The position numbers and the translations under genes are program-made. From Daphnia pulex (taxonomy: Eukaryota; Arthropoda; Branchiopoda; Diplostraca; Daphniidae), in NCBI RefSeq assembly GCF_021134715.1, contig NC_060023.1, forward strand, positions 9,238,001-9,302,000: DNA of 64,000 nucleotides, written 5' to 3'. Positions 41,816 through 63,702 of the stretch are shown in pieces (the first letter of the stretch is position 1; each line of letters begins with the position of its first letter). The notes under the pieces were generated by a model. That model saw only the letters and a program-made list of their open reading frames with translations, ran no database searches and had not been told where the DNA came from.

Positions 41816-43385
41816 ATTGGGGCATTGATTCACATGAAGGAAGCGAAGGAAAAGAAGACAAGAGAAAGAAGGGGAAACATAGAAAAGTAATCGGGTCGTG
41901 ATACGGACGTTCACCTAACAAAACTTTAATTCGACACCAATCCGACGTTCCTTCAACAGCTAGCAACTATATTTCCGCAATGGTGCGAAAATATTTCGAC
42001 GACAGGTAGCTAATGTATTTTGACCTAACCTAATTTAACCTACTTAAACTAACTTAACCTAACCTTAAAAACTAATTGTCGAAGTACTTTGGCATAGACT
42101 GTGTCTACGTATTCTCACACCATTGTGGAAATATAGTTGCCTTACGTCGAAGGTAACATCAAATGGGTGCTGAATTTCAAGTTTTGTCAGATGAAACTTC
42201 CAATATCCAACCCAATTCTGAAAGAAGAAGATGACGAAAAAGATGAAGAAGAAGAACAATACATGAAGGGAAATAATCAATGGGAAGATAAAGAATAAGA
42301 TAGAAAGAAATATAATGAATGACAAGAGTAGTATTTTTTTAAGTTTTTTTTAGAGAGGGAGGGGGGAATACACGAAAAAAGCGAAGGACAAAAAGATAAC
42401 GAGAAAGAAGGTGAAAAATAGAAAAGAATCGGGTCGGAATACGGACGTTCACCTAACAAAATTTTAATTCGACACCAATGCGACGCACCTTCAACATCTA
42501 GCAACTATATTTCCACGATGGTTCGAAAATATTTCGACGATAGTTATAGCTAATGTACTTCGACCTAACCTAATCTAACCTAACCTTAACTAACTTAACC
42601 TAATCTTAAAAACTAATTGTCGAAGTACCATTAGCATACACTGAGTCTACGTATTTTCGCACCATTGTGGAAACATAGTTGCTACCTGTTGAAAGAGCGT
42701 CAAATTGGTGTCGAATTAAAGTTTTGTTAGTTTAACGTCCGTATTCCAACCCGATTACTTTTTCTGTTTTTCCCCTTCTTTCTCGTTATTTTTTTTCCTT
42801 CGCTTCCTTCGTGTATTCTCCCCTCCCTCTCTAAAATAAAACTGAAAAAAATACTACTCTTGTCATTCATTATATGTTTCTATCTTATTCTTTATCTTCC
42901 CATTAATTATTTACCTTCATCTATTGTTCAACTTCTTCATCTTTTTCGTCATCTTCTTCTTTCAGAATTGGGTTGGATATTGGAAGTTTCATCTGACAAA
43001 ACTTGAAATTCAGCACCGATTTGATGTTACCTTCGACATAAGGCAACTATATTTCCGCAATGGTGTGAGAATACGTAGACACAGTCTATGCTAAAGTACT
43101 TCGACAATTAGTTTTTAAGGTTTGGCTAAGTTAGTTAAGGTTAGGTTGGATTAGGTTAGGTCGAAGTACATTAGCTACCTGTTGTCGAAATATTGTCGCA
43201 CCATTGTGGAAATATAGTTGCTATGGCTGTTGAAGGTGCGTCTCATTGGTGTCGAATTAAAGTTTTGTCGGATGAAACTTCCAATATCCGGCCCAATTTT
43301 GAAAGAAGAAGATGACAAAAAAGATGAAGGAAAAAAAGGGGAAGGTGAATTTAGGGGAAAGAAACAGGAAAGATGACAAGAGTAG
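41816..43385. repeat. Nested fold-back repeat cluster with degenerate CCTAA tracts
   Basis: The unit at about 41816-42345 recurs in direct orientation at about 42346-42610. The sequence 42060-42600 then recurs inverted at about 42610-43100, forming an imperfect palindrome of roughly 1 kb centred near 42600. Landmarks are GCAACTATATTTCC, its inverse GGAAATATAGTTGC, AATTGTCGAAGTAC, and GATGAAACTTCCAATATCC (42191 and 43272; inverted at 42978). Each unit is itself folded around a tract such as GACCTAACCTAATCTAACC. No ORF fits a transposase, so it is best described as a non-autonomous fold-back/MITE-like cluster; family unknown. Confidence 0.75.
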
Positions 43386-43429: not shown

Positions 43430-44572
43430 TTACTCGGCTGACGACGCTGCATCCCTAACTTTCCTTGCTTTTCTCCGTCGGTTGGTTCTTTGGTTTGTTT
43501 TTTGTTTACGGGTAAGAGGGTTGGTCTCACAAGGAGGAGAGTCTTCCGTCGGGTTCTTGACTTCAACAGAATTATCCAAGTGAGTTGTAGTGGTGTTCTG
43601 CTGGATTTCTTCAGCTATTGTTCTTTGTGAAGTCTCTTGAGACATATTCTGCTGGTGGACGGCCACGGCTTCAGGTACACTTGGTGCGTAACCGATTGAT
43701 GGGGAAGCATTAATCCAATCGGCGACAAAAACGCCATCCATTGCTGTTGCAGGAACCGGCTCCTCTTCCTTCTGGTACGATCGTTGGCCGTTGATGAAAT
43801 TGGCCACTTCTGCCTTGTTCCCTTTAAACATCATCGGGCAATCGGCCACTTCTATCAGTCCGTTATTCGAGTCAACTGTCGGCTGGTGTTGTTCGACTAA
43901 AGTCTCATCGTCGGTAAATTTAATATCAGAGACTTCAGTCGTCGCTGGAGTTATTGCGAAGTTGCTAGTAGATTGCACCGGCTCGTCACATCCTGATGAC
44001 AATAGCTTGAAAGTCTCCGTTTCGCTTTCGGCAAACAATCGAAGGACTTGTTTGTTCTTTACTTTTAAGTCAATCAGGTTATTATCGAGTAGATTGTCAA
44101 TTTCATCTCGATTGTTGTCAGATGAAATCCCAGATATAACGTCGAGGAGACGGTCTTTGTTTTCAATAACGTGTCTCAACTCTTTTTCCCTGTTGATCAG
44201 ACGAATGTTTTCCTCTTCAAGGAATCCCATCGCACGTTTGAAGGCTTCCAACTCGTCTTGTGCGTGTTCAAGCTTGCGATTCTTGTTGGCAGATAGAGCG
44301 AGTTCTATTTGAAGTTTGGTAAGTTGAATCTTTAGATCTTGATTTTCAGCTGTAACTCTATTCTTTTCCGCAAGCTTCTTGATCAAACTGTTGTAGCTGT
44401 CGTCGCTGGTGGTAGAAAGACTAGTAACATTGGTGGTACCTTTTGGGGTCCCTAAGACGTCCGGTTCAACACTGTTAACAACTGATTGCGATGTGTTATC
44501 AATGCACTGACTGATGAAATATGAGATCATCCAAGCCATAAAAGATATAACGAAGTCAACAATCAAAGGCAT
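43430..44572 (-). CDS. Intronless coiled-coil protein with N-terminal membrane anchor, function unknown
   Basis: One uninterrupted frame of 380 codons. Residues 4-24 (IVDFVISFMAWMISYFISQC) form a hydrophobic signal-anchor. Residues about 60-155 are Leu/Glu/Lys-rich with heptad character (EKNRVTAENQDLKIQLTKLQ), predicted coiled coil. The middle is acidic and Ser/Thr-rich and the C-terminus is strongly basic (TRKQKTNQRTNRRRKARKVR). I do not recognise a family. The promoter upstream is strong, which argues for a real gene. Its stop lies about 45 bp from the fold-back repeat cluster. A single exon is unusual beside the intron-rich neighbours and could reflect retroposition or a young gene. Confidence 0.7.
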   Translation of the reverse strand: MPLIVDFVISFMAWMISYFISQCIDNTSQSVVNSVEPDVLGTPKGTTNVTSLSTTSDDSYNSLIKKLAEKNRVTAENQDLKIQLTKLQIELALSANKNRKLEHAQDELEAFKRAMGFLEEENIRLINREKELRHVIENKDRLLDVISGISSDNNRDEIDNLLDNNLIDLKVKNKQVLRLFAESETETFKLLSSGCDEPVQSTSNFAITPATTEVSDIKFTDDETLVEQHQPTVDSNNGLIEVADCPMMFKGNKAEVANFINGQRSYQKEEEPVPATAMDGVFVADWINASPSIGYAPSVPEAVAVHQQNMSQETSQRTIAEEIQQNTTTTHLDNSVEVKNPTEDSPPCETNPLTRKQKTNQRTNRRRKARKVRDAASSAE

Positions 44573-44620
44573 TTTGAAGACAAGATTCTAAGCTTTTGTG
44601 AATTGAGTACTTGTTTTGAG

Positions 44621-44660
44621 AGTTTATATGGAATGTCTTGGCGTTGCCTCCTTATATAGC
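44621..44660 (-). promoter_or_regulatory. Two tandem TATA boxes for the coiled-coil gene
   Basis: Reading the minus strand, GCTATATAAGG (44660-44650) and CATATAAAC (44630-44622) lie about 50-90 nt upstream of the ATG at 44572. Either could place a start site in the AC-rich stretch before the ATG. Confidence 0.5.
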
Positions 44661-45064
44661 CTACGCTGGCAGAGGAATCCCAACTGCACGAGCTCATTTC
44701 CTATGTTTTTCTTAGCTATTGAATTAAATTTCTTCTGTTTAACATTTTATATTGAATTAAAATCGTAGTTCAAAGTATTACACATATTTTTCAACAAGTT
44801 TAAAGTTGAATACAATTAATTGTAATCCTTTTATTTTCATTTTTGAATGAAGGTCACAATTTGTCTTTCTTCACTGACGAGTTACTGGACCACTTTTCAG
44901 TGGTCGCTTCCGTCCACTATGACACGCACACACCTGTAGTCACTCATCACGAGATTATGCCTAGGTACTGGACAATTCACTTATCAAGTAGGTACATCCC
45001 TGTAAACATTTAGCCTTAAAGATAAGGAAGTTGTTTTGTGGCAGCAAAAATGTTGTGATTACTA
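44661..45064. other. Intergenic gap
   Basis: AT-rich flank between the coiled-coil gene and the giant inverted repeat. No gene is seen. Confidence 0.5.
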
Positions 45065-45204
45065 AATACTAATGATAACTATTCCGAAAACTAAAGTCCA
45101 CTTGTTAAATTTTCGATGGTTGCTATTTTTCTGTCTATTTTCTGTTTCTAAATTCGTTAGTAAGTGTGTAAATTTTCGTGTGACGCCGAAAAGAACCCAT
45201 TAGT

Positions 45205-46165
45205 TAATTATTAATTACCCGAAGGGTTACTGGTCAAAGTTTCGTTTACAGTATGGTTTACATGGGCACCCTCAGTTCTCGTAACACAACATAGATGGCT
45301 GCACTAGTTTTTGGCAATTATTGATTGTAATCAACAATTTAATTGCATTTCAATGGCAGCAATCGGTAGCTTACAATTTTTTACATCTATTCTGAAAATT
45401 TGGCTGCAATCAATTCAGGCGTTTGATCAAACGGAGTTCTTGTTACTTTTTGACAGAATTTCAATAGCTGTTAGAGCAGACGATAACACAGAGACATGTG
45501 ACAGGATGACAGCATCGTCTCTATTGAATATGACCAGCATGACCCAGGATCGAAGAAAAAGCGTAGAGTACCGCCGTTGATTGTTGGACCATCTCTAGCC
45601 TGTCTTATTTTTCTTTTCAAAATTATCATCCTGTTGGAGTAATATTGTAGGCTTATGATAGAATAGAAGTCACTGTATGTTATTACCTAACCGCACCTAA
45701 CGCTATCAATCTCCAGTAAAAGAAGTGCTGATAGGTAGTTACTTACATTTAATTTTAACAACATCCGGTGTGACGTGGGGTGGCGGGGCGAAGCCTCCGC
45801 CGCAACAAAGTCACGCCTTACCCTTACGCCGCGCCATATCATATTAGGTTTTTGGGAATTGAATTTGTATTTAATGTTTGGATAGAAACATGCGGAAATA
45901 TGCTTTTCATCTCTTTCTCGATTTCTGCATATTACATTCTTCCGGAAACTAAGGGCATAACATTTTTGTTTTAAATATTATTAATTAATCTTAATAATAG
46001 GCCTACCTTTATAACAGAATATTATTTTTATTCTATAACTATTCTATAGCTCTGCCTTTATAAAACTATACCAATACAGCAATTCTACTATTCCAACTAG
46101 TATACCCTTAACATCCCCTTCGGGTACCTTGCGGCGTACGTACGCTGCCTACAGTTAACACCTAG
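45205..46165. mobile_element. Insertion specific to the left arm (possible transposon remnant)
   Basis: About 960 bp present in the left arm but replaced by about 35 bp at the matching place in the right arm (near 56905-56938). It contains a GC-rich hairpin-like stretch (GGCGGGGCGAAGCCTCCGCC near 45782) and AT-rich sequence, with no transposase ORF. That it is an insertion rather than a deletion in the right arm is an inference. Confidence 0.4.
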
Positions 46166-46339
46166 TTTATTTTCCGTCCGAGGTCCGACTCGAGTCGTCC
46201 GTGGATTCTAAGGGCTGTCACTAGGTGGCTAAATATTTCAGTGTGTTTAAGGATTGAACAATTCGACCCTAGTGTGTCAAAGTCCTAACTGCTTAGTCTT
46301 GTCTTTTCTTTCGAGACGGGCCACCAGACGGCGTCGGAG

Positions 46340-47880
46340 AACGTTAGCTTTGCGGGGTAATTTTCTTCTCTTCCTGAAATTGTTCGTCAGATAAATGGTA
46401 GCTACTTGTATTCTTTATGGTTATTGAAAATGAGATTATTGTGCGTGGTGAATATTCAAGTAACATGTTCATCAACGTGTACAATTTCGTAAAATGTCGT
46501 CTCTTGCTGTACGTCGCACGTTTCGAACAAGATGAGGTATTACCACGCCATTCGACTTCGATCAAGCTGAACCGAAAGTGAACTAATACAAAGCAAGTAA
46601 GTTAATCGTGGTATTTAAAGTTTTCGAAAAGCAAATGTGTCAATCTACCTTGATCTATTTGTTGAAGCATATCGAAGATCTTGCTTTTCTCCACGTGGTC
46701 GCTGCCGTGTCATGAAGATGCTGGTGCTGCCTCTTCTATATTGCAGGACAAATGTGATGCAAAGAAGAAATCTGAAAAGGTAATTAAGTACCTCTTCTAC
46801 TCTTGATTTGTAAGCTTAACCAAGTAGGTAAGAAGTATTGATGTTGAAGACGATTGATATTTTTTCATACTTCCATACAAGACAGCAATTGTCAGGTTGA
46901 TCAGAACGGACATTCCCATTAACTTTAAAAAGTAATCTTAGTGCCAAGTAAAAACCATAGATACCCATGACTATGTTTATTTTTCGTGTTTGGTTTTGCA
47001 ATTTCCTTTAGGCTGAGATGCATTTGGCTTCTGCAGACATGTACTTAGGCCAATACTTGCTGGAATTATAATCTGTTGGTATGTGTAGATATAGTATCTG
47101 TTTAAAAATCCAGCCATGTGTGATTAAACTGCTGTCCATTTTGCTTTTACGTTGTATATCGTTTCCCGTGTAGGTTCAATGTGAGTACTATCCCATGCAG
47201 ATGCTTAAGTTACATAAATATCCCTTCAATAGTGTAATTGATTATATAATTTAATTTTAAGATAAGACATTCCTTATGAAGAATTTAACAACATGACCAC
47301 ATCTAAGCTTCATTGCTGTCCTGCAGGAAGTTTTCTTGCAGCCAATTGGCGAAAGAGAGTTAAAATCAAGTTGAGCTGCGGCCCCTGGAAGCAGTCTACA
47401 TTGCTGGTGTCATTCTGAAGTGGGGAAATGTTACCTGAAGTTTAAACAGCAACAAAGACACAATGAAATGGTAATTTGATTGTGATTATGGGTTGTAACT
47501 GGGGATGTCTGGTCAAGTCCAATTTAAATGTTGAAGTGGGACTAAGGTTTTTTTGCGAGGATAGATGCCTGCTTGATCAGCTTGTGCTGAGTAAAATTTT
47601 CTCTTTGATGAAACAAGAAATTCCAATTCCCTCAAACAAACTTATGGTGCAACCTTGTCTTATAATTTAAAGAATTTGCTGTATTTAATCTATATTTTAG
47701 GTTAAACTTGATGGTTATTTTCTTTCCTATTTTTTACTTCATGTTTGTTTTACATCTGGAACATGTTTTAAGTTAATCAATGGGTTTCGTTTTTTCCCCC
47801 ACAGGTGACAACGTGATGCATCCTACGTATGTTGGTAATTTAAGGGCATGTGTCGAGCAGAAGGAAGACGAGTCTCATTT
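46340..47880 (+). repeat. Tandem unit A, left arm (exon/intron-like, non-coding)
   Basis: Diverged duplicate of the unit at 47890-49080. Shared landmarks in order: CACGCCATTCGA with CTGAACCGAAAGTGAAC, GCAAGTAAGT, CATGTCGAA/CATATCGAA, GTGTCATGAAGATG, a roughly 35-nt purine-rich block between TTGCAG and GGTAATTA, GGAAGCAGTCTACATTGCTG, and TGGTAATTTGATTGTGATTA. Several blocks have AG-exon-GT edges, suggesting a spliced transcript without coding capacity. The mirror copy is at about 55190-56730 on the opposite strand. Confidence 0.65.
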
Positions 47881-47889
47881 CATTTATTT

Positions 47890-49080
47890 CTGGGACGCTG
47901 TTCGAGGACAATTTTTAGTTATTTCTTGGTGATGAATGCCTTGACATTTTTCACCATCTAAATGGTATTTGCTTGTATTCTATATGTTCATTTAAAAATG
48001 TGAATGTTTGATGTGGTGAATTTACAGGTAACATATCCTTGGTTCATGTGATCATGTAGCCTGCTGTAGATATTCCAAAAATGTCGTCCCTTGTTGCATG
48101 ACGAGTTTCGTCACATGAATAGGTATTTCCACGCCATTCGACCAAACTGAACCGAAAGTGAACCATTTAATGCAAGTAAGTGAATCCTATTAGATAAGAC
48201 TTCTGAAAAGCCCATTTGCTAATTTATTTCTATCTAAATGTAAAAGCATGTCGAATATTTTGCCTTTCTCCATGGGTCCATGGGCTGTGTCATGAAGATG
48301 GATCTTTGAGAGGGTCACTACTGCATTGCAAGACAGAATGATGAAAAGAGGGAAAATATTAAGGTAAAGTACATGTAAGCTTAATAAAGTAGGTTAGTAT
48401 TAATGATGTTAAAGATAAGTTTATCGGTTTATTTTCAGGTAAAAGAATCCTTTCCTTATCTGCTGAAGAATTTGAGAACACAGCAAAGTCTGGACCACAT
48501 TTCTGTCTTGCAAGAGGTTTTGCTGCTGCAGCCAGCCATTGAAAGGGAGTTCAAATGAAGTTTAGTTGAAGCTCCTGGAAGCAGTCTACATTGCTGGTGT
48601 CATCCTAAAGTTAAACAGCAACACAGATAAGCTGGTAATTTGATTGTGATTATGTTTGTAATTGGGGAAGTCACATTAAAATGTTGTAGTGGGTAAATTG
48701 TTTTTAAAAGATAGGTCTTATTGAAAGAGTTGTCTGCTTGATCAGATTGTTTTAGACTGTAATTTTGTATTTGTTTCAACTAGAACAAACTTCTTTAAAA
48801 ACTTTTGATGAAACCTTGTCTTGCAGTTTAAAGAATTTTCCTGCTGCTAGATTGCATTTGGTCTAGATTTTAATTTAAAGTTGACATGACATTTCTGTTT
48901 CTTTCATCACATGGTTTTTTACATCTGCTATAGGTTAAAATGATAATTAATGAATTTGCTTTTTCTCAGCAGTGTCAATGTGATGCTGCATACTGTCAAT
49001 GGAGCTGGTGTTATCCACAAGTTTAGAAGCAAAACTAGAAGCACAGGTGCAAGAACACATCCCGAAATGGTAATTTGATT
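47890..49080 (+). repeat. Tandem unit B, left arm (exon/intron-like, non-coding)
   Basis: Second, diverged copy of unit A, with the same block order (CACGCCATTCGACC, GCAAGTAAGTG, GGAAGCAGTCTACATTGCTG, TGGTAATTTGATTGTGATTA). A third occurrence of the last block follows at about 49071, so a further partial repeat begins there. The mirror copy is at about 53990-55180. Confidence 0.65.
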
Positions 49081-50452
49081 GTGATTGTTAGTTGTAACTC
49101 GAGAAATGTAGGCTTTTATTGAAATGTGTTAAGTCACAAGTTAAACTGTTAACCGACGCGGGATTTTAGCAGTATGATTGAAGTTATTGTGAAAGGATGG
49201 TGTATTGCATTATTGACGGAGTTCTAGATTGTCGATTTTCTGAGGAAGAAGTTATCAGATAAATTTCCTCTTAATTCTACAAACTATTTATGAAGTTTTG
49301 AAGTTGTATTATATCTATTTTTTGGGTTTCTGACAGGAAGGTGGAAATTTGCCGTGGTTTTGCAGTCTGCTGCCTGTTCAAGCTGTTGCTATCCTGGATT
49401 TTGCCTTAGTCCTTGAAATAGCAATGTTGGTGGTATCCAGATGTTGCTGTGGCAGTGTGGCAGTGAAATTCGGGTTGAAGATTAAAATATTTTCGTCTGA
49501 TAAATGTTTATCGATCCATGTAGCGTATGATTGAAGTAACTTGATATTAATTTGCTATTCCATGTCACATGTTGCAGCCCGTGTTGGTGAGAGTTCTTTG
49601 ACATTAAGTTCTATCTGCTGTTGATGTTGGTTATGATATTACCTTTATCCACATCCACATGATATCAAATTATTCCTTATTAATTGATGGCCAAACCTCC
49701 TAAGTCAAACCTGCAATCTTGTGTTATGTTAACTTCATTGTTTATATCTTATCACATTTCACTTGTAATCTATATAAATATAAATAATACACAAATAAAA
49801 AAATACTAATCAACTGAAATGCTTTTAATAGAATGAAATAAATCTAAATAAATATTGACCAATAAAATTTAAACAAATTAAAATATAATTAAACTTAAAT
49901 AAGTTAACTTAATTAATTTAAGTTAATGTAATTAACTTAAATTAATGTAATTAAATTAAGTTAATGTAATTAAATGACTAAAATTTCACTGTTTTTAATC
50001 AAAATGGTTGTAATTTAATAAACAAAGCGTCCGGTACAAGACAATTGTTTTTCTGTGCAAGTTTTAAAACCAACTATACCCAAATAAAAGAAGCCTAACA
50101 AACTCCTTTTGTTTCATTTGGGTGATAAACTGCTTCTAAAACTTGCACAGGTAGTCAATGAAGACGGGGGTCACACTGCCTTAATTGACTGTAGCCAGGG
50201 AGATCAGACCACAGTAAAGAAGGGAGCCCAGATATACACTTGTGATTTATCTAACAACTACACAATCTATCAGTCTTGAATCACAGCATTCTCTTGTCAG
50301 CTTTTACCAATTGGATGAAGTCCATTAAAAGTAGCAAAGGAGTTACCCCTGTAGACAGAAAGAACTTTTACTAGGATGACAGTAATTTTTAATAAGATTT
50401 TAGCAACAGAAAGCCATACCTCAAATCAAGAGGGCCCGTTTTAGCTAGTTAG

Positions 50453-51037
50453 TTAGCTAGTTTTAGCAACTAAAAAGGGATATTCAAGGGTAGCAGCAAT
50501 CGGGTTTACCACTGTATTGCCATTGTCCTTTTTCTTCAAAGGACATGACTTCTCATAAATTCTAAGAACCTGTAAATAAAAAATCAAGTCACCTTGTTCA
50601 TAATTTGTTTCATCGATGTGCTTGATGTCTATCATGTAAAAGAATAATTAAACATAAACATTAGATAGACGTTATCGAGAACAATACTCTATTGTATATA
50701 TATTTCAGAAAAATACTTGATCAAGCTAGTGTTAGTTGTTACCTCTGTCATTTACGCATTTGGATGACACATTCAGTAGGATCCCAGGATTTACAACACA
50801 ATAGTTGACAGGTAGGCTGCATGCCACTTTCACATTTTCTCCTGGAAATTAATGAGAAATAGTAAGGTTATAAAACACATAAAAGGAAAAGAACACATGC
50901 CCAACAAATTACACACAAAATATATCCAATTTACCTACGAATTCTTTGGTAATTTTTGAAGAAATTAGCTTTAGCTGAACTGTTGATAACGAGCCGCCAT
51001 AATTAGCACATATCAACACAATATTCTTTAGCGCCAT
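50453..51037 (-). CDS. Small three-exon gene at the inner edge of the inverted repeat, function unknown
   Basis: Minus-strand exons 51037-50935, 50841-50743, 50628-50453; both introns phase 1 with consensus GT/AG edges; 125 aa. The protein starts MALKNIVLICANYGGSLSTV, continues through VKVACSLPVNYCVVNPGILL and ends LEYPFLVAKTS. No signal peptide or motif is recognised. All three exons join in one frame, which is the main support. The last ~35 coding bases and the 3' flank lie inside the inverted repeat, so the right arm carries a copy of the gene's end (52978-53025, plus strand) without the rest. Could be a truncated or lineage-specific gene. Confidence 0.5.
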
Positions 51038-51165
51038 CTATTTGACACGTCCAAAACCCACTTTCTAAAGGACCGACCTTAGATAGTAAAAAAAGTCATA
51101 AAAGTAATCAAAAAGACCATTTCTGTTCGCTTAAATTGGCACGGAGTGTTTAGAATTGTACAGAG
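51038..51165. other. 5' flank of the small spacer gene
   Basis: Short stretch between the gene start and the MITE-like element. Nothing else is seen. Confidence 0.4.
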
Positions 51166-51555
51166 AACAAAGCTCACTTGCTAGTTTTATGCAAATTTTT
51201 CGGAAGTATACCGGAAGTAGTCGATAGCGCCTCAACCATTGAGCTGCCGACCAAATAAACGTGATATTCGTGAGCTACGTGAAATTTGGGGTCGATTAAG
51301 TCTAATTTAAACGAAATCCAGAATTTGGCCAAAATCGAGAATTTTCCTGAACTATAGTTCAGGAAAATTTTCAAAACCGGAAGTACGAAAACGTACAAAA
51401 CAAAACATGAACTTTACCACAAATTTAACGAGGATCACGAATATGTGGTTCTTTTGCTCCTCGAATGAATATTTACTGAACTACTGACTGAAAAGTAGAA
51501 AACCGGAAGTAGAAAAAAAAACTCATTATTAAAATTCTAACAAGTGAGCTTTGTT
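51166..51555. mobile_element. MITE-like element with 15-bp terminal inverted repeats
   Basis: AACAAAGCTCACTTG at 51166-51180 is mirrored by CAAGTGAGCTTTGTT at 51541-51555. Inside are several CCGGAAGTA-type motifs (about 51208, 51378, 51502) and a perfect 30-bp palindrome at 51340-51369 (half-site AATTTTCCTGAACTA). No ORF. Target-site duplication is not evident by eye. Confidence 0.55.
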
Positions 51556-52977
51556 GCTGAAACAGAAAGTGACAGTTATCACCCAAATTTTTTTTAAAGT
51601 AGCATTGAGAAAATTCTTCAGAGATGTGCAAAGTAAGCGTATTTAAACCGATTCTAACAGGTAAAAAATGATTAAAAGCTATGCCGTCTAGCGTCAGAAA
51701 GAATAAACGTTTAAATGTAACATGAAAACAATGTCCGCTCTAGCTCGTTGACATTCAATTGAAAGAACTGGCAAACAAAGGTAACAAATAACTTTGATAC
51801 TCACGTAATATTCTCCATGCAAATTTCATAAGAAAGCCACCACGCAGCATCACACATCACAAAAGACGAAATTCCCAAGGTGATATTGAACGCCACTTTA
51901 ACTTCTACACTGAGGAGAAGGCACTCAAGACAGATATCCGTTCATGTTGTCTGCAACTGATTCTAGACGTTTCAGCACCTGGGCAACAGTGCTGGACTGG
52001 ACAGTGGATTGCTGAAAGGGAAAACCATTTGGTAAGGTAAACCTGCCAGTTATTCAGAATGTGTTTCTATTCATTGAGGACACTACTAGGCCATGTACTA
52101 CAAGGCAACAGCAAACATTAAATCAATCACAAATGATGGTGAAGATGAAAAATCCTTTCCACAAGCTACCCTATCTGACAACAACAGCATGTTCCTGGCT
52201 CATTTGATCCAGGGACTGGGCATCTTATTAAATTAATATTCACCTGTATCACCCTTTTAGCTTTATTCCTGTCATTCTGCACTTTACCTTACCTGTGATA
52301 AATCTTTCTTTTTTTTCTGTAGGTTTCGATGGCCATTGATAATTGAAGAGAAGCATTGGAATGCAACAGCTTGTCTGGCTTCGTCTGGACCTAAGTTACA
52401 CCAAACAGAACACGGGATCTAAACAAATTTAGATTCAGATTTTTTAGGTAAGTTATTGGACCGTTTTTAATTAATAGATAACACAACATATAGCTAATGG
52501 TTCTTGTTGCTTTCTGACTTAATGTTTCAGCTTAAATTTCAGCTGAAGTTTTCGTGTGACCTAGGTGCTTGTGACAATAGAAATCAAGGTAATAATGCAA
52601 GCTATGTCTTCCAAAGCAAAATAGTTTCTACTGTCATTTGATTTTTATGATAATATTTCAGGTTAACTTCCCCTGTCAAATCATGGTAAATCTTCAAGAT
52701 ATTGATGCCTTACCCAGATCCAATTCTTTGCTGCTATCTCTTCTCTTTTGTAGATAACAGCAAAATAATGCTGCCACTCAAGAGGCTGTGGTGCCTGCCA
52801 CCACCACAGTTCTAATTTAGGACAATGTAACATCATTGATAGATTGGAGATATTGCTTGCTGTTGCTATATATTGTTTGAAATTTAAATCTAAATATTCT
52901 CGCCTTTCAGGGCGAGATTCTCACCACCGTTACAATTGTTTGGAAACTGACAGCACTAACCAACGCTCACAGGTGGG
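51556..52977. other. Spacer of the giant inverted repeat
   Basis: Unique sequence with several splice-like edges on the plus strand (TTTCTGTAG at about 52320, TTTTTTAGGTAAG at about 52442, CTTTCAG at about 52910) but no coding frame. It may be the 5' part of a non-coding transcript running into the right arm; inference only. Confidence 0.4.
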
Positions 52978-55900
52978 CACTACCCTTGAATATCCCTTTT
53001 TAGTTGCTAAAACTAGCTAACTAACTAGCTAAAACGGGCCCTCTTGATTTGAGGTATGGCTTTCTGTTGCTAAAATCTTATTAAAAATTACTGTCATCCT
53101 AATAAAAGTTCTTTCTGTCTACAGGGGTAACTCCTTTGCTACTTTTAATGGACTCCATCCAATTGGTAAACGCTGACAAGAGAATGCTGTGATTCAAGCC
53201 TGATAAATTGTGTAGTTGGAAATATCTGACCACCCTTCTTTAATGTCGTCTGGACACTCTGGCTACAGTTAATTAGTGGCTACAGTTTCCTTGTCGCACG
53301 TATATATATATATATTTATATTTCTAAAGATTACAAGTGAAACGTGATAAGATATAAACAATAAATGATTAATGGGGTTTGACCATCAATTAATAAGGAT
53401 TAATTTGATATGTGGATGTGGATAAAGGTAATATCATAACCAACATCAACAGCAGATATAACTTAATGTCAAAGAACTCTCACCAACACGGGCTGCAACA
53501 TGTGACATGGAATAGCAAATTAATATCAAGTTACTTCAATCATACGCTACATGGATCGATAAACATTTATCAGACGAAAATATTTTAATCTTCAACCCGA
53601 ATTTCACTGCCACACTGCCACAGCAACATCTGGATACCACCAACATTGCTATTTCAAGGACTAAGGCAAAATCCAGGATAGCAACAGCTTGAACAGGCAG
53701 CAGACTGCAAAACCACGGCAAATTTCCACCATCCTGTCAGAAACCCAAAAAATAGATATAATACAACTTCAAAACTTCATAAATAGTTTGTAGAATTAAG
53801 AGGAAATTTATCTGATAACTTCTTCCTCAGAAAATCGACAATCTAGAACTCCGTCAATAATGCAATACACCATCCTTTCACAATAACTTCAATCATACTG
53901 CTAAAATCCCGCGTCGGTTAACAGTTTAACTTGTGACTTAACACATTTCAATAAAAGCCTACATTTCTCGAGTTACAACTAACAATCACAATCAAATTAC
54001 CATTTCGGGATGTGTTCTTGCACCTGTGCTTCTAGTTTTGCTTCTAAACTTGTGGATAACACCAGCTCCATTGACAGTATGCAGCATCACATTGACACTG
54101 CTGAGAAAAAGCAAATTCATTAATTATCATTTTAACCTATAGCAGATGTAAAAAACCATGTGATGAAAGAAACAGAAATGTCATGTCAACTTTAAATTAA
54201 AATCTAGACCAAATGCAATCTAGCAGCAGGAAAATTCTTTAAACTGCAAGACAAGGTTTCATCAAAAGTTTTTAAAGAAGTTTGTTCTAGTTGAAACAAA
54301 TACAAAATTACAGTCTAAAAAAATCTGATCAAGCAGACAACTCTTTCAATAAGACCTATCTTTTAAAAACAATTTACCCACTACAACATTTTAATGTGAC
54401 TTCCCCAATTACAAACATAATCACAATCAAATTACCAGCTTATCTGTGTTGCTGTTTAACTTTAGGATGACACCAGCAATGTAGACTGCTTCCAGGAGCT
54501 TCAACTAAACTTCATTTGAACTCCCTTTCAATGGCTGGCTGCAGCAGCAAAACCTCTTGCAAGACAGAAATGTGGTCCAGACTTTGCTGTGTTCTCAAAT
54601 TCTTCAGCAGATAAGGAAAGGATTCTTTTACCTGAAAATAAACCGATAAACTTATCTTTAACATCATTAATACTAACCTACTTTATTAAGCTTACATGTA
54701 CTTTACCTTAATATTTTCCCTCTTTTCATCATTCTGTCTTGCAATGCAGTAGTGACCCTCTCAAAGATCCATCTTCATGACACAGCCCATGGACCCATGG
54801 AGAAAGGCAAAATATTCGACATGCTTTTACATTTAGATAGAAATAAATTAGCAAATGGGCTTTTCAGAAGTCTTATCTAATAGGATTCACTTACTTGCAT
54901 TAAATGGTTCACTTTCGGTTCAGTTTGGTCGAATGGCGTGGAAATACCTATTCATGTGACGAAACTCGTCATGCAACAAGGGACGACATTTTTGGAATAT
55001 CTACAGCAGGCTACATGATCACATGAACCAAGGATATGTTACCTGTAAATTCACCACATCAAACATTCACATTTTTAAATGAACATATAGAATACAAGCA
55101 AATACCATTTAGATGGTGAAAAATGTCAAGGCATTCATCACCAAGAAATAACTAAAAATTGTCCTCGAACAGCGTCCCAGAAATAAATGAAATGAGACTC
55201 GTCTTCCTTCTGCTCGACACATGCCCTTAAATTACCAACATACGTAGGATGCATCACGTTGTCACCTGTGGGGGAAAAAACGAAACCCATTGATTAACTT
55301 AAAACATGTTCCAGATGTAAAACAAACATGAAGTAAAAAATAGGAAAGAAAATAACCATCAAGTTTAACCTAAAATATAGATTAAATACAGCAAATTCTT
55401 TAAATTATAAGACAAGGTTGCACCATAAGTTTGTTTGAGGGAATTGGAATTTCTTGTTTCATCAAAGAGAAAATTTTACTCAGCACAAGCTGATCAAGCA
55501 GGCATCTATCCTCGCAAAAAAACCTTAGTCCCACTTCAACATTTAAATTGGACTTGACCAGACATCCCCAGTTACAACCCATAATCACAATCAAATTACC
55601 ATTTCATTGTGTCTTTGTTGCTGTTTAAACTTCAGGTAACATTTCCCCACTTCAGAATGACACCAGCAATGTAGACTGCTTCCAGGGGCCGCAGCTCAAC
55701 TTGATTTTAACTCTCTTTCGCCAATTGGCTGCAAGAAAACTTCCTGCAGGACAGCAATGAAGCTTAGATGTGGTCATGTTGTTAAATTCTTCATAAGGAA
55801 TGTCTTATCTTAAAATTAAATTATATAATCAATTACACTATTGAAGGGATATTTATGTAACTTAAGCATCTGCATGGGATAGTACTCACATTGAACCTAC

Positions 55901-57085
55901 ACGGGAAACGATATACAACGTAAAAGCAAAATGGACAGCAGTTTAATCACACATGGCTGGATTTTTAAACAGATACTATATCTACACATACCAACAGATT
56001 ATAATTCCAGCAAGTATTGGCCTAAGTACATGTCTGCAGAAGCCAAATGCATCTCAGCCTAAAGGAAATTGCAAAACCAAACACGAAAAATAAACATAGT
56101 CATGGGTATCTATGGTTTTTACTTGGCACTAAGATTACTTTTTAAAGTTAATGGGAATGTCCGTTCTGATCAACCTGACAATTGCTGTCTTGTATGGAAG
56201 TATGAAAAAATATCAATCGTCTTCAACATCAATACTTCTTACCTACTTGGTTAAGCTTACAAATCAAGAGTAGAAGAGGTACTTAAATACCTTTTCAGAT
56301 TTCTTCTTTGCATCACATTTGTCCTGCAATATAGAAGAGGCAGCACCAGCATCTTCATGACACGGCAGCGACCACGTGGAGAAAAGCAAGATCTTCGATA
56401 TGCTTCAACAAATAGATCAAGGTAGATTGACACATTTGCTTTTCGAAAACTTTAAATACCACGATTAACTTACTTGCTTTGTATTAGTTCACTTTCGGTT
56501 CAGCTTGATCGAAGACGAATGGCGTGGAAATACCTCATCTTGTGGCGAAACGTGCAACGTACAGCAAGAGACGACATTTTACGAAATTGTACACGTTGAT
56601 GAACATTTTACTTGAAAATTCACTACGCACAATAATCTCATTTTCAATAACCATAAAGAATACAAGTAGCTACCATTTATCTGACGAACAATTTCAGGAA
56701 GACAATTACCTCGCAATAACTCGCCCAACGTTCTCGGACACCGTCTGGAAATAAAAGACGGGCCCGGGGCTTTTGCAGTCAGGACTTGGACGCACTACGG
56801 TCGAATAGCTCAATCCCTAAACACACTGAAATATTTAGCCACCTAGTGACAGCCCTTAGAAATCCACGGACAACTAGAGTCGGACTCGGACGGAAAATTA
56901 AAAAAAGGTTAAATCTATTGCCACCGTGCCACGACATAAATAATGTTGGGTTCTTTTCGGCGTCACAGGAACACTCATACTTATTATCGAATTTAGAAAA
57001 TGACAGTAGATTAAAAAAAAACGCAATTATCGGAAATTTAACAAGTGGACTTTGTTGATGGAATAGTTATAGTCAGATATCACAA
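52978..57085 (-). repeat. Giant inverted repeat, right arm
   Basis: Reverse complement of the left arm. Inner boundary at CTACCCTTGAATATCCC (52984), outer boundary near 57085. It contains mirror copies of units B (about 53990-55180) and A (about 55190-56730). It lacks the left-specific segments, so it is about 1.3 kb shorter. Outer differences from the left arm include CGTTGCACGTTTCGCC versus CGTCGCACGTTTCGAA near 56545. Inside the inner half only scattered single-base differences were found by eye. Confidence 0.9.
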
Positions 57086-57513
57086 ATAAGTTACCACACG
57101 ATAACTGCCGATCATTTTTACCGGGATGTCCCAAGTAGCTAAAACTGACTAATTTGAAATTAGTCCTAGAAATTAGTAATTTCTAATTTGACAGCTGAAA
57201 ATTATCAAAGGCAAAATTTAATAAAGCCATCAAGCGTTATTAGAAAAAAGAAACGTAGTTACAAGTAAAACTTCGTTTGCGCGCAAGAAGGGCCTGATTT
57301 TTGAATTATAGTTTATGTAACTATTGTAAACAATGTTCTGTGACAAGGTTATAAGAAAAAACACTATATTACATTTTATTTGCCTATTACTATTAATAAG
57401 GAACTTTGATAAATTAAAAATTAGTACAAAAGGGATATATTAAAAAATGTTGGTAAAACTTATCTCATCAGCAAATGATTTCATACTGATGAAATAATAT
57501 TATGTTTTTGATA
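57086..57513. other. Intergenic gap
   Basis: AT-rich sequence between the inverted repeat and the 3' end of the 5'-nucleotidase gene. No gene is seen. Confidence 0.5.
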
Positions 57514-60500
57514 TTACTTAATCATTGTTTGGGAGAGCAGTAGTAGAAGTGCCGTCAATGAAGATATGGGAACAGCGGAAGTTGCGAAACCAGAAAGATT
57601 TGTTGATCCTGAATTCGCATTATTTTTGGTCTTTCCACAATCCATAAGATTTGTTTCATTGGCAAAGCGGATTCGACCTTCCACACCTGTCGTAATTGGT
57701 GAAATCCTTTCCATGTAACCTATAATCGTGTCTACATCGAGACTACCTATAGCGAAATCAAAATAAATAGCGAAGGATCAGTGAGATTTCTGACTAAACG
57801 AAATTGAAATTTTTAGGTGTCACCCGTAAGTGTATGTTCAATAATGTTTCCTTTAATGGCGAAACCGTCCCCTCCACCCGCAAAAAAGCTAGCCACAGCG
57901 ATGTCGTAAGTTTCCTAGTAATTGTGCAATTACAATTTCAGAATTCATATTAGTATTTTTTCCCTGTAAAATGCATTAAATGAACCTCAGGCTGTACGGG
58001 ACGATAAATTGGAATGCGGCAATTATTACAACGAGCTAAAAGTTCCATTACTCTGTCCCCTTTGGACCTAGAGATGTCGTAGACAACACGGACACCTGTT
58101 GGGGTCAGTATAACAGGGTTAAACAACACAGTATGGAAATAAGGTATCGCCACAAATTCACCTGCAACCTGCAGAAATCCACCGAAAGGATCCAAAGCTT
58201 TAGGATCATAATCGTGCACAGTAAACTCGAAAATATTCTTCAGCGTTTCGCCGCTGATTTTGATAATATCGACCGTATTACTGAAAGGAGCGACAGCAAG
58301 GAGATCGCCATAAGTGATGGATCCTGTCAATCAAAGTTAGGCCATTGAATCCATCAAATCGAAACTAAAAACAATAATTCAACCGACCATTTTGAGCACG
58401 TTCGTCGATAGAAGCCCGAATTCCTCCGCTGTTGACGAGAGCGATAGCTACTTTATTCCACTGGCCCTCGCCTGCAAACTTAGTGAACTGCATTGAAATA
58501 AAAGGCATCATTAAATCATCGCATAGCATTTTTCATTATAAATCAATTCGGTTGTTTACCAAATCGACGTACGCGTCAGCTAGGAAATTTCCGAGATTGC
58601 ATTCAACCATTCGACATGACAGGCGATTTCCGTCTAAGAAAACCCGAGTTTTCCCAACTTCCTTTTCGGATAATGCTTCAACTTCTTTACGAAAAGGAAT
58701 TAATTCCTGCAAGACGCTCGGATCTGTTGGAAAGCTTTGATTAAGGCACAGCGTTGATCAATCAAATTTGGCTTGGCATAAAATACTACCTTGAGGTATA
58801 CTCTTATCCATAAGAATAGGGAGACCTGCTGTGGCGATGACCTCTCCTTCATCGTTAAATGTCACCATCAAGTTGCCCAGGTATTTGCCAAACGCAAAAG
58901 CTTGGACGACTGGCACACTTTTCCCAGATGGCTGTTTCACCATAGTCGGATACGGCCCCTGTGGCTCTTCGATTGATGGAGCCGGACCTATAACGAATAA
59001 GAAAGTATTAAACACTCAGAATAAAGAAAACAAAAACGAGCCAATAGATTAGACTATAAAGTTGTGTGCGCTACCATTCCACAGAAAAGTGTTGGTATGA
59101 CCGCCTACCACCACGTCGATGTCTGGAACTTTTGCAGCAATTTCCATATCTTTTAGATAACCTGCGTGACCGACTGCAATCAAAATATTGACTCCGCTCT
59201 TCTTGAGGCGTTCCGCTTCATCCCGAACGCCCTGAACTTCGTCAAAGATTTTGACGTTACCCGCGGAGGAGATATACTGCACAATTTGTCGTAATAAGCC
59301 AAAGGAAACACATTTTTAGGTTTTACAGATTCGCCGGATTGTCTAAAGGTAAACTTATATTACCGTTGTTTCTGTAGTCAGATAACCAATAATTCCAACA
59401 CTTTTTCCTCCAACTTGCACGACAATCGATTTAGAAATTTTCCCCTGTAGCCGAGGTTCATTACTGCTGTCAATATTGGCTGCCAACACCTTATATAGAA
59501 AATATTTTAAAAAATTGTCTAAAATTATTTCAAATACACATTTGATTGTTTACTGGGTGGTTGGCAGATTCCACAAATGGTATAAGCCCGTCAACTCCAT
59601 CGTCAAATTCGTGATTACCAAGCGACTATAAAAACAAAGGAATTGAATGAAAAAGCAATTAATACAGGGAAACACACAATCACATTAAAATCAAACCAAT
59701 GGGTGGTGAAAGAGCATTAGCAAGGGGATAGTAGTAAAGGAAGTAAACAAATCCTTATTAAAAGGCTTTCACGACCACGTACGTACCGGGAAGTGGGGCG
59801 TTTCCCCATTTATTGTGGTGAAATAAAAGCACAAAAACGTTTTACAAAATCCGGTTTTCCCCCTACGTCAAACATCATTACCGTACGTGATAGATCAATA
59901 ATTCACAAACAAAAAAAAACAATGCTATCGGGATGTGTACACATTTGAATCTAACGCGCCACACGGATGGGCGGCAACCACAACCAGGTCGATGAACAAG
60001 GAAAAAACACACTAAACATTTTGACTACAAAAAAAAAATAAACAATAGGGAATTCAGCATAACCTTCGTTGCAAAATCATCGGATTGGAAAGTGACCATT
60101 AAAAACGATGACGTCTGGTAAAAAATTTAGACAACGAAACTAAAAAGAGATAAGCAGCAAGTCGACAGGCACTTCTTTGAAAAGATTTCGCTAAAAAGTA
60201 GGCCACAACCAGCCCACGATCGTATCGCTGAAGGGTTCGTACGTTAGGAATTTGAGAGTGAAAAGTAAACAAAAAATAACTTACCATGGCGGTTAGGTTT
60301 AGCATGTTTCCAAAGTGGCTAACGGCCTTCCATTTGTGGATGCTATACCAGCTGCCGAGCGGTGACGGTGTGTCAATAAACCGAATGTAAAAAAAAAAAG
60401 CAGAAAGAAAATTCAGATTTCAAATTTGCCGCAATATTTTTAGATGGATGAGACTCACATGGTGCCCTGGAAGAAATCGCCAGCGTTGAGAAAAATCGTG

Positions 60501-60742
60501 TTCGGATGCTGATTCCGGATTTGTCGCGCTTGGTGGACGAGACGAGCGTAGCCGCCGAAACAATTGCCTTTATCCGAGTCCTGTTGTCTGCAAGTCCCTG
60601 CATTTTTGTTGGCCTCGTCGAAACGGCAGTGAATGTCGTTTGTGTGCAAAATGGTCAAATTGAATGAAGCTGACGTCCAATGGACAACAAATAGAAACAG
60701 CCATAGAAGCGGCAGAGCGTTGCGTGTCGATAAGGTTCGCAT
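57514..60742 (-). CDS. NT5E: Ecto-5'-nucleotidase (CD73-like), GPI-anchored
   Basis: Twelve minus-strand exons: 60742-60459, 60351-60285, 59625-59554, 59489-59364, 59276-59075, 58987-58790, 58723-58560, 58487-58388, 58323-58162, 58095-57986, 57914-57824, 57746-57514; 602 aa. Signal peptide LPLLWLFLFVVHWTSA. The metallophosphatase domain has the metal ligands in ILHTNDIHCRFDE, NAGDFFQGT, LGNHEFDDG, VGHAGY and VGGHTNTFLW. The C-terminal nucleotide-binding domain has VALVNSGGIRASID-type sequence (IALVNSGGIRA), GDLLAVAPFSN and FFAGGGDGF. The end, SAVPISSLTALLLLLSQ, is hydrophobic, as for a GPI anchor. The family hydrolyses extracellular AMP to adenosine; an apyrase-like relative is possible because arthropod salivary apyrases share this fold. 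Intron 2 is the largest at 659 bp. Confidence 0.92.
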
Positions 60743-60816
60743 TTTTCACTAGACTGTGAAAACGCTAAGCGCTTCACGTTATGTTTATACTCGGATTTAC
60801 TGAGAGGCGTCACGTG
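60743..60816 (-). promoter_or_regulatory. 5'-nucleotidase core promoter with TATA and two ACGTG cores
   Basis: On the minus strand: TATAAA at 60789-60784, an Inr-like TTCACAG with A at 60757, and the ATG at 60742, giving a 5' UTR of only about 15 nt. A CACGTG E-box (60811-60816) lies just upstream of the TATA box and AACGTG (60780-60775) just downstream; both contain the ACGTG hypoxia-response core. Confidence 0.45.
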
Positions 60817-62316: not shown

Positions 62317-63672
62317 CTAGTATTTGGGAGCTTCCTTGTAGTAAGCTGGAGAAGCATAGGTTGTGGTGTAATATTCTGGTGCTTTAGTGGTGTAGTAGCT
62401 AGGGGCAGAGTAATACTTCGGGGCTTCGGTGTAGTAACTGGGTGCAGCGTAAGTTGTGGTGTAATATTCCTGGGCTTTGGTGGTGTAGTATTGAGGAGCC
62501 TCTGTTTGGTAGTAACTAGGAGCTGAGTAGTACTTGGGAGCCTCGGTGTAGTAAGCTGGAGCGGCGTATGTTGTGGTGTAGTAAACTGGAGCTTCAGTGT
62601 AGTAACTGGGGGCAGCATACGTCGTAGTGTAGTAAGAAGCTGTGGTGTAATACTCGGGTGCCTTGGTGGTGTAGTAAACAGGAGCCTCGGTTTGGTAGTA
62701 GCTTGGAGCAGAGTAATACTTGGGTTCCTCGGTGTAGTAGGCTGGGGCAGCATACGTGGTTGTGTAGTATTCGGCCTTTTCGGTGTAGTACTTGGGGGCT
62801 TCGGTGTAGTAGCTAGGTGTAGCGTAGGTTGTGGTGTAATAAACTGGAGCCTCGGTGTAGTATTTGGGTTCAACGTAGTACGAAGGGGCAGCCGCTGTGT
62901 AGTAAGTTGGGGCTACGTAATACTTGGCAGCCTCAGTTGTGGTTGTGTAGCTCGGGGCAGAGTAGTACTTGGGGGCTTCAGTGTAGTAGCTAGGAGCAGC
63001 GTAGGTTGTAGTGTAGTAAACTGGAGCCTCGGTGTAATATTCAGCCGCTTTGGTGGTGTAGTACTTGGGAGCCTCGGTGTAGTAAACTGGGGCAGCGTAG
63101 GTTGTAGTGTAATACTCGGGTGCCTTGGTGGTGTAGTAAGTTGGAGCCTCGGTGTAGTAGCTTGGAGCAGAGTAATACGTGGTAGCCTCGGTGTAGTAAG
63201 ATGGGGCAGCGTATGTAGTAGTGTAATACTCCGGTGCTTTGGTGGTGTAGTACTTGGGAGCCTCGGTGTAGTAGCTTGGAGCAGAGTAATACGTGGTAGC
63301 CTCGGTGTAGTAAGATGGGGCAGCGTATGTAATAGTGTAGTACTCGGGCGCTTTCGTGGTGTAGCTCGGGGCAGAGTAATACTTTGGCGCTTCGGTGTAG
63401 TAGCTAGGGGCAGCGTACGTTGTGGTGTAATACTCGGGTGCCTTGGTGGTGTAGTACTTGGGGGCCTCGGTGTAGTAGGTCGGTGTAGCGTATGTTGTTG
63501 TGTAGTAGGGCGGCGGCGTGGGGTAGTATTCCTTCGCCGTTGTGGTTTGGTAAGAATATCCACCGTACCCAGGAGACATCGGTACACCCGTGGTCGACCC
63601 AGCCATCAACGATACAACACCCAACAGCAGCACGACGCCATAATTAACTAGACAATTTATAAATTTAAACAT
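62317..63672 (-). CDS. Secreted Tyr/Thr/Pro-rich repeat protein, probable extracellular structural (cuticle, shell or adhesive) protein
   Basis: 451 aa from the ATG at 63672. Signal peptide region GVVLLLGVVSLMAGSTTG, then MSPGYGGYSYQTTT and about 20 imperfect repeats built from YYTEAPKYY, YYTTKAPEYY, TTTYAAPSYY and YYSAPSYY to the C-terminus (YKEAPKY). Tyr is spaced as YY pairs with Glu/Lys between, a composition seen in cross-linked matrix proteins (dityrosine or quinone tanning); that role is inference. No chitin-binding RR motif is visible. The DNA is a GT-rich minisatellite-like array and length polymorphism is expected. A longer reading from an in-frame TTG at 63702 has no ATG and is not adopted. 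Confidence 0.8.
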   Translation of the reverse strand: MFKFINCLVNYGVVLLLGVVSLMAGSTTGVPMSPGYGGYSYQTTTAKEYYPTPPPYYTTTYATPTYYTEAPKYYTTKAPEYYTTTYAAPSYYTEAPKYYSAPSYTTKAPEYYTITYAAPSYYTEATTYYSAPSYYTEAPKYYTTKAPEYYTTTYAAPSYYTEATTYYSAPSYYTEAPTYYTTKAPEYYTTTYAAPVYYTEAPKYYTTKAAEYYTEAPVYYTTTYAAPSYYTEAPKYYSAPSYTTTTEAAKYYVAPTYYTAAAPSYYVEPKYYTEAPVYYTTTYATPSYYTEAPKYYTEKAEYYTTTYAAPAYYTEEPKYYSAPSYYQTEAPVYYTTKAPEYYTTASYYTTTYAAPSYYTEAPVYYTTTYAAPAYYTEAPKYYSAPSYYQTEAPQYYTTKAQEYYTTTYAAPSYYTEAPKYYSAPSYYTTKAPEYYTTTYASPAYYKEAPKY

Positions 63673-63702
63673 TATTAACCGATATAAATTGCCAAGTAAC
63701 AA

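What the first reader, a model, noticed from the sequence alone, without database searches (positions are those of the whole stretch)
45065..57085. Giant inverted repeat of about 12 kb with near-identical inner arms
Arms of 4.1 and 5.4 kb flank a 2.5-kb spacer. Over 3.5 kb the coordinate sum stays at 103070 with almost no indels, and identity rises from the outer end towards the interior. This gradient is what arm-to-arm gene conversion would give. No transposase, long ORF or known palindrome family explains it. Large palindromes with spliced non-coding content are known from sex-linked and amplicon regions of animals.
Basis: partly seen in the sequence, partly recalled or inferred. Interest (0 to 1): 0.72.

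Follow-up and report, generated by a model that had tools for sequence, protein, structure and literature searches.

The report
Large DNA palindrome kept self-identical
A stretch of animal chromosome carries two mirror-image 3-kb copies that stay almost letter-for-letter identical, most likely because they overwrite each other, and it belongs to a scattered family of loci that share one strictly kept 26-letter palindromic core of unknown function.

Summary
The inverted repeat is real. Core arms 46527-49658 and 53412-56543 differ at 6 of 3132 bases with no indel. The "gradient" does not: identity is a plateau with sharp edges, and the longer left arm is mostly a 944-bp dispersed repeat that the right arm lacks.

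Two relatives on the same chromosome, a single copy about 100 kb away and a second palindrome about 270 kb away, allow a test. Inside the core 38 of 38 informative sites join the two arms, although the core is a mosaic of two paralogue types; in the outer edge 0 of 6 do. Arm-to-arm conversion of an old palindrome predicts this; misassembly or recent duplication does not.

The spacer is not filler. It holds a 410-bp symmetric block with a 26-bp perfect palindrome, matched at 409-495 places genome-wide (controls 0). Among the first 100 listed, neighbours within 15 kb are inverted in 17 of 18 cases, against 34 of 77 farther apart. But 0 of 4 sampled lone cores were palindromic. No coding content was found in the arms. 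Sex linkage is not supported. A heat-shock-element reading was tested and not supported.

The parts
45068..45211 (+). outermost part of left arm; partner 56936-57083; about 105 bp of it also resembles one half of the spacer core (66%)
45212..46155 (.). dispersed repeat inserted in the left arm only (100% to copies on C2 and C8)
46166..46526 (+). outer edge of left arm, unconverted: 28 of 343 compared columns differ from the right arm
46527..49658 (+). left core arm, 99.8% to the right core; mosaic of two paralogue types with a switch at about 48.03-48.33 kb; two related 1.6-kb modules inside (65-67%)
49662..49786 (+). inner edge of left arm, 10 of 94 compared columns differ
50255..50493 (+). 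innermost left arm block, 98% to 52980-53218
50494..52979 (.). spacer; 50696-52950 is conserved in order with the arms in related loci
51147..51556 (.). 410-bp core, imperfectly symmetric, shared with loci whose other sequence is unrelated
51342..51367 (.). 26-bp perfect palindrome at the centre of the core; 409 places genome-wide with up to 3 mismatches, control 0
52980..53218 (-). innermost right arm block
53412..56543 (-). right core arm
56544..56901 (-). outer edge of right arm; nearest to the C7:9.40 copy, not to the left arm
56936..57083 (-). outermost part of right arm; also resembles one half of the core (66%)

Best explanation
An old inverted duplication of one unit of a large dispersed repeat family, lying around a shared symmetric core, whose two arms are kept nearly identical by gene conversion between them. 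Shown: the arms match at 99.8% only in a 3.1-kb core; that core is a mosaic of two paralogue types with the same switch point in both arms; the edges outside it have a different history. Inferred: an exchange with a relative on the same chromosome made the mosaic, and arm-to-arm conversion then copied the outer half from right to left and the inner half from left to right. Also inferred, with less certainty: the 410-bp core is a two-way regulatory element, perhaps a promoter, bound by a dimeric protein at the 26-bp palindrome, and inverted pairing of units around cores supplies the template that conversion uses. The arms look non-coding.
For: 6 of 3132 differences in the core, against 28 of 343 just outside it. 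With four sequences (both window arms, C7:9.40 copy, one arm of the C7:9.57 palindrome) 38 of 38 informative core sites unite the window arms, and 0 of 6 in the outer edge. Both arms are C7:9.40-like in the outer half (77 against 210 differences) and C7:9.57-like in the inner half (47 against 179). The C7:9.57 palindrome shows the same thing independently: its arms are 99.8% alike while it is 77-94% to the window. C7:9.40 keeps a stump of a second arm, and the outer right flank is shared by eye with C7:9.40 and one side of C7:9.57, so the palindrome is older than the split of these loci. Core: 0.98 mean pairwise identity in the 26-mer, 0.91 in the core, 0.77 and 0.61 in the flanks, 13 copies.
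Against: Inner block 50182-50493 does not follow the pattern: there the left arm is nearer C7:9.40 (8 differences) than C7:9.57 (20), and the one informative site unites the arms. Edge blocks give few informative sites (6, 1 and 1). One genome only, so conversion is inferred from pattern, not seen between individuals. Lone cores need no palindrome: 0 of 4 sampled. Transcription was not tested; splice signals are weak.
Confidence: 0.75

Rival explanations
1. Recent inverted duplication without conversion: the arms are alike only because the second copy is young.
For: High identity and no indel in the core.
Against: The edges on both sides, which would be equally young, differ far more (28 of 343, 10 of 94, 79% outermost), and in the outer edge the right arm is nearer another locus (11 differences) than the left arm (28).
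Confidence: 0.07
2. Assembly artefact: two haplotypes or a hairpin read joined head to head.
For: No reads were available to span it.
Against: The two sides differ beyond the core, with a repeat private to one arm, unlike edges and different neighbouring genes; other palindromes of the family in the same assembly have their own spacers and differences.
Confidence: 0.06
3. The family is a transposon-like element with gene capture; palindromes are head-to-head insertions or inverted dimers, and half-cores at the outer arm ends are element ends.
For: 409-495 core places, dispersed; core half-copies at the outer arm ends; different cargo beside the same core.
Against: No transposase or known domain in the ORFs tested; I found no sharp common ends and no target duplication, though I compared the outer ends of only five arms; neighbouring sequence is duplicated with the unit. 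It does not by itself explain the sharp-edged identity of the arms, so it could be true together with conversion.
Confidence: 0.25
4. Hairpin-RNA locus: transcription through both arms gives a long double-stranded RNA that is cut into small RNAs against related genes.
For: Near-perfect inverted arms with a 3.7-kb gap; broken copies of a gene family in other palindromes with the core.
Against: No transcript or small-RNA data; the gap is long; lone non-palindromic cores exist.
Confidence: 0.08
5. The 26-mer is a double heat-shock element, making these heat-inducible loci.
For: With its flanks it reads as GAAnnTTCnnGAA / TTCnnGAAnnTTC; at least one perfect three-unit array at each of the 16 core sites in the fetched loci and window.
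Against: The 12 GAA/TTC positions are intact at 380 places (control 11) and 12 of the other positions at 384 (control 9): no extra constraint on the heat-shock letters.
Confidence: 0.06

Closest known systems
Mammalian X and Y chromosome palindromes with arm-to-arm gene conversion (PMC3723533, PMC8981503: search listing with start of abstract only)
   Same: inverted arms over 99% alike, kept so by conversion; non-identical spacer
   Different: here the arms are about 3-5 kb, the relatives lie on many chromosomes, no sex linkage is indicated, and a shared core sequence lies in the spacer
Long inverted repeats of paralogous gene pairs in Caenorhabditis (PMC1803023: abstract and Discussion read)
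   Same: autosomal-type inverted repeats of similar size (2207-bp arms, 99.7%, 126-bp spacer at F44E5.4), structure kept while sequence changes, conversion proposed
   Different: here the arms show no coding content, the spacer is 2.5 kb and carries a core found hundreds of times
Palindromes in parthenogenetic animals, Adineta vaga and Folsomia candida (PMC7953838, PMC5490193: passages only)
   Same: palindromes in genomes of (partly) parthenogenetic invertebrates
   Different: those are blocks of collinear genes, 19 and 15-16 per genome; the survey could not screen D. pulex; conversion was doubted for F. candida
Heat-shock-element-bearing Helitrons of Caenorhabditis (PMC6927752: search listing with start of abstract only)
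   Same: dispersed repeats carrying a regulatory-looking motif
   Different: no Helitron feature was tested here, and the HSE reading is not supported

Membership tests
palindrome maintained by arm-to-arm gene conversion | two long inverted arms over 99% identical around a spacer | tested here: met
palindrome maintained by arm-to-arm gene conversion | arms more alike to each other than to paralogues although the duplication is older | tested here: met
   core 38 of 38 informative sites; outer edge 0 of 6; stump of second arm in C7:9.40
palindrome maintained by arm-to-arm gene conversion | conversion seen between individuals or species | not testable with these tools
   only one genome of this organism is held
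sex-linked or ampliconic palindrome | location on a sex-limited or non-recombining chromosome, germ-line genes in arms | tested here: inconclusive
   related sequence on all twelve large contigs and no known domain in ORFs tested; sex-chromosome status of C7 not testable
DNA transposon | transposase or common ends with target duplication | tested here: inconclusive
   no domain at cut-off in nine ORFs of the region; five outer ends compared by eye without a common sharp end
HSF-bound repeat | extra constraint on GAA/TTC positions | tested here: not met
   380 (control 11) against 384 (control 9)
hairpin-RNA locus | transcript across both arms and small RNAs | not testable with these tools
   no RNA data

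The most novel reading that the evidence does not exclude
The 410-bp core with its 26-bp palindrome is a sequence-specific element, bound or folded, that both seeds inverted duplication of whatever lies beside it and promotes conversion between the arms, making palindromes again and again across the chromosomes of an animal.
Probability: 0.12. Interest if true: 0.85.

Novelty: new variant of a known kind. Interest (0 to 1): 0.55.

Why it matters
Long self-converting palindromes are best known from sex chromosomes. A dispersed family that shares one conserved core would let palindrome birth, conversion and decay be compared across many replicates in one genome, and the strictly kept 26-mer gives a concrete target for finding a binding protein.

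Tried and rejected
Rfam scan of 44000-58500: no match up to E 1. Pfam on nine ORFs of the region and one neighbouring ORF: four matches in all at E up to 0.1 were possible, three came, none reaches its curated cut-off. Coding reading of 50744-50843 (-): splice-like ends are kept in most copies, but length runs from 71 to 105 nt over 16 rows and the frames break. Heat-shock element: constraint test negative. Regular spacing of cores at about 125 kb, suggested by eye: of seven stretches only C5 reaches P 0.03 and C2 left (0-6 Mb) is no more regular than random (P(CV<=observed) 0.93), so not claimed; several positions in that script were rounded by me and the lists are partial. Splice signals: weak. 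Every core in a palindrome: rejected, 0 of 4. Literature: the core 14-mer is in no held paper; five searches on Daphnia with palindromes, inverted repeats, gene conversion or heat-shock elements listed nothing on this family; one on the YYTEAP repeat found nothing; one was for the organism. A census of 45 inverted loci used rows that I picked by eye, so it is not used as a statistic. The 15-kb limit was chosen after I had seen close inverted pairs in earlier listings.

Full report
What is there. The window lies at G000:C7:9238001-9302000 in an assembly of 133,188,837 bases in 13 contigs. Size and contig number resemble the Daphnia pulex KAP4 assembly; that identification is recalled, not tested. 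Core arms 46527-49658 and 53412-56543 differ at 6 of 3132 aligned bases without an indel. Outside the core identity falls sharply: the outer edge 46166-46526 differs at 28 of 343 compared columns and has several indels, the outermost 45075-45211 matches 56936-57070 at 79%, inner edge 49662-49786 differs at 10 of 94, and the innermost block 50255-50493 is 98%. The profile is a plateau, not a gradient. The extra length of the left arm is mainly a dispersed repeat at 45212-46155 that the right arm lacks and that is 100% identical to copies on C2 and C8.

Relatives. The left core arm gives 65 matches in the genome, a lower bound because only 40 of 195 candidates were scored. The closest are a single copy at C7:9396230-9399336 (89%) and a second palindrome at C7:9563928-9574631 with 4.4-kb arms at 99.8%. 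Further palindromes with related modules are at C3:277026-291783 (5.9-kb arms, 99.4%), C12:8972567-8996378 and several places on C6. The spacer belongs to the family too: 50696-52950 is 93% in the single C7 copy, and blocks of it lie in the same order beside the arm blocks in most of the C3, C5, C7 and C12 loci fetched, though in C3:277026 and C3:1.28 only 50696-51585 is kept and the order differs; the C6 loci share only arm modules and have no 26-mer.

Gene conversion test. I aligned both window arms with the C7:9.40 copy and both arms of the C7:9.57 palindrome and counted informative sites with four of them, leaving out the second C7:9.57 arm, which is nearly identical to the first. In the core 38 sites unite the two window arms and none contradict. 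In the outer edge none unite them, five unite the right arm with C7:9.40 (and the left with C7:9.57), and one shows the other pattern. In the outer half of the core both arms are C7:9.40-like (77 against 210 differences), in the inner half both are C7:9.57-like (47 against 179), with the switch between about 48.03 and 48.33 kb. Two arms that share one mosaic, between edges of different ancestry, is what conversion between the arms predicts. The inner block 50182-50493 is an exception: the left arm there is nearer C7:9.40 (8 differences) than C7:9.57 (20), and its one informative site unites the arms. Beyond the right arm, flank sequence is shared by eye with C7:9.40 and one side of C7:9.57, a 75-bp piece of the left flank matches the same side of C7:9.57 at 81%, and C7:9.40 keeps a stump of a second arm. 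So the palindrome is older than the separation of these loci.

The core element. In the spacer lies a 26-bp perfect palindrome (51342-51367), present with 0-1 mismatch at all 16 core sites found in the fetched loci and window of that stage, and absent from the four C6 loci. It sits inside a 410-bp block with an imperfect inverted symmetry (51147-51556). Over 13 copies (three within-locus repeats dropped of 16; two of the 13 still come from one 30-kb region) mean pairwise identity, gaps counted as differences, is 0.98 in the 26-mer, 0.91 in 51150-51580, and 0.77 and 0.61 in the flanks. The 26-mer occurs at 409 places with up to 3 mismatches, reversed control 0. A one-sided core pattern with up to 2 mismatches has 495 matches, control 0. 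Of the first 100 of these 495 (C1 to C5, all that the tool lists) 18 neighbouring pairs lie within 15 kb and 17 are inverted; of 77 farther pairs 34 are inverted (Fisher P 1.1e-4). The C2 locus L029 is a palindrome with 97% arms that shares with the window essentially the core and pieces beside it; next to its core lies a broken copy of a YYTEAP-repeat gene, itself related to the gene at 62317-63702 of the window. Of five cores taken at even steps from the list, one was already known to lie in an inverted pair and was not fetched; the other four show no palindrome within 5 kb. Two of these lie next to YYTEAP-like sequence and two next to sequence like the window's arms. So palindromes are common around cores but not required.

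What it does. None of nine ORFs of the region has a Pfam domain at cut-off, no Rfam family matches, and one splice-like exon is non-coding by its length changes. Strong donor sites are mildly enriched on the inward strand of the left arm (4 against 1.3, P 0.05), less in the right arm (3 against 1.3, P 0.15), and acceptors are not; the gene array at 7.4-33 kb, used as a control, gives 15 against 5.8 on its + strand. I therefore call the arms probably non-coding and possibly transcribed. The symmetric core, with CCGGAAGT repeated on both sides (a motif recalled as ETS-like), looks like a two-way regulatory element; this is inference. A heat-shock reading of the 26-mer failed its constraint test.

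Place among known things. By the features that could be tested it belongs with palindromes kept alike by arm-to-arm conversion. It differs from the sex-chromosome cases by its small arms, by relatives on many chromosomes and by the shared core. A 2020 survey of palindromes in parthenogenetic animals could not screen D. pulex (PMC7953838, passages). The paper searches made here list nothing on this family; the library lacks most subscription papers and bioRxiv preprints, so this does not show that it is unpublished.

Noticed in passing
62317-63702 (-): Open frame of 461 aa made of YYTEAP/YYTTKAPEYY-type repeats, no Pfam domain; 262 matches genome-wide (listing cut), many as inverted pairs with equal scores and shared stops.
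   Followed up: partly
7448-32737: Direct tandem array of about nine related units, 71-90% identical, all in the same orientation, unlike the palindrome beside it.
   Followed up: no
41918-43268: A separate imperfect palindrome of about 1.35 kb, 88.7%, with further internal repeats.
   Followed up: no
45212-46155: Recent-looking dispersed repeat, 100% identical to copies on C2 and C8, private to the left arm.
   Followed up: partly
57950-60745 (-): Exons of a 5'-nucleotidase-like gene (Metallophos and 5_nucleotid_C domains) directly beside the right arm.
   Followed up: no
L015, L016, L017, L018 (C6): Palindromes without a 26-mer that carry about four alternating inverted repeats of about 290 bp near their centre.
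   Followed up: partly
L022:8207-8881 and 9284-9958; L023:3260-3928; L024:6439-7179: Related open frames of 223-247 aa (MKKGFGDWS...) beside the C3 palindromes; family not looked up.
   Followed up: no
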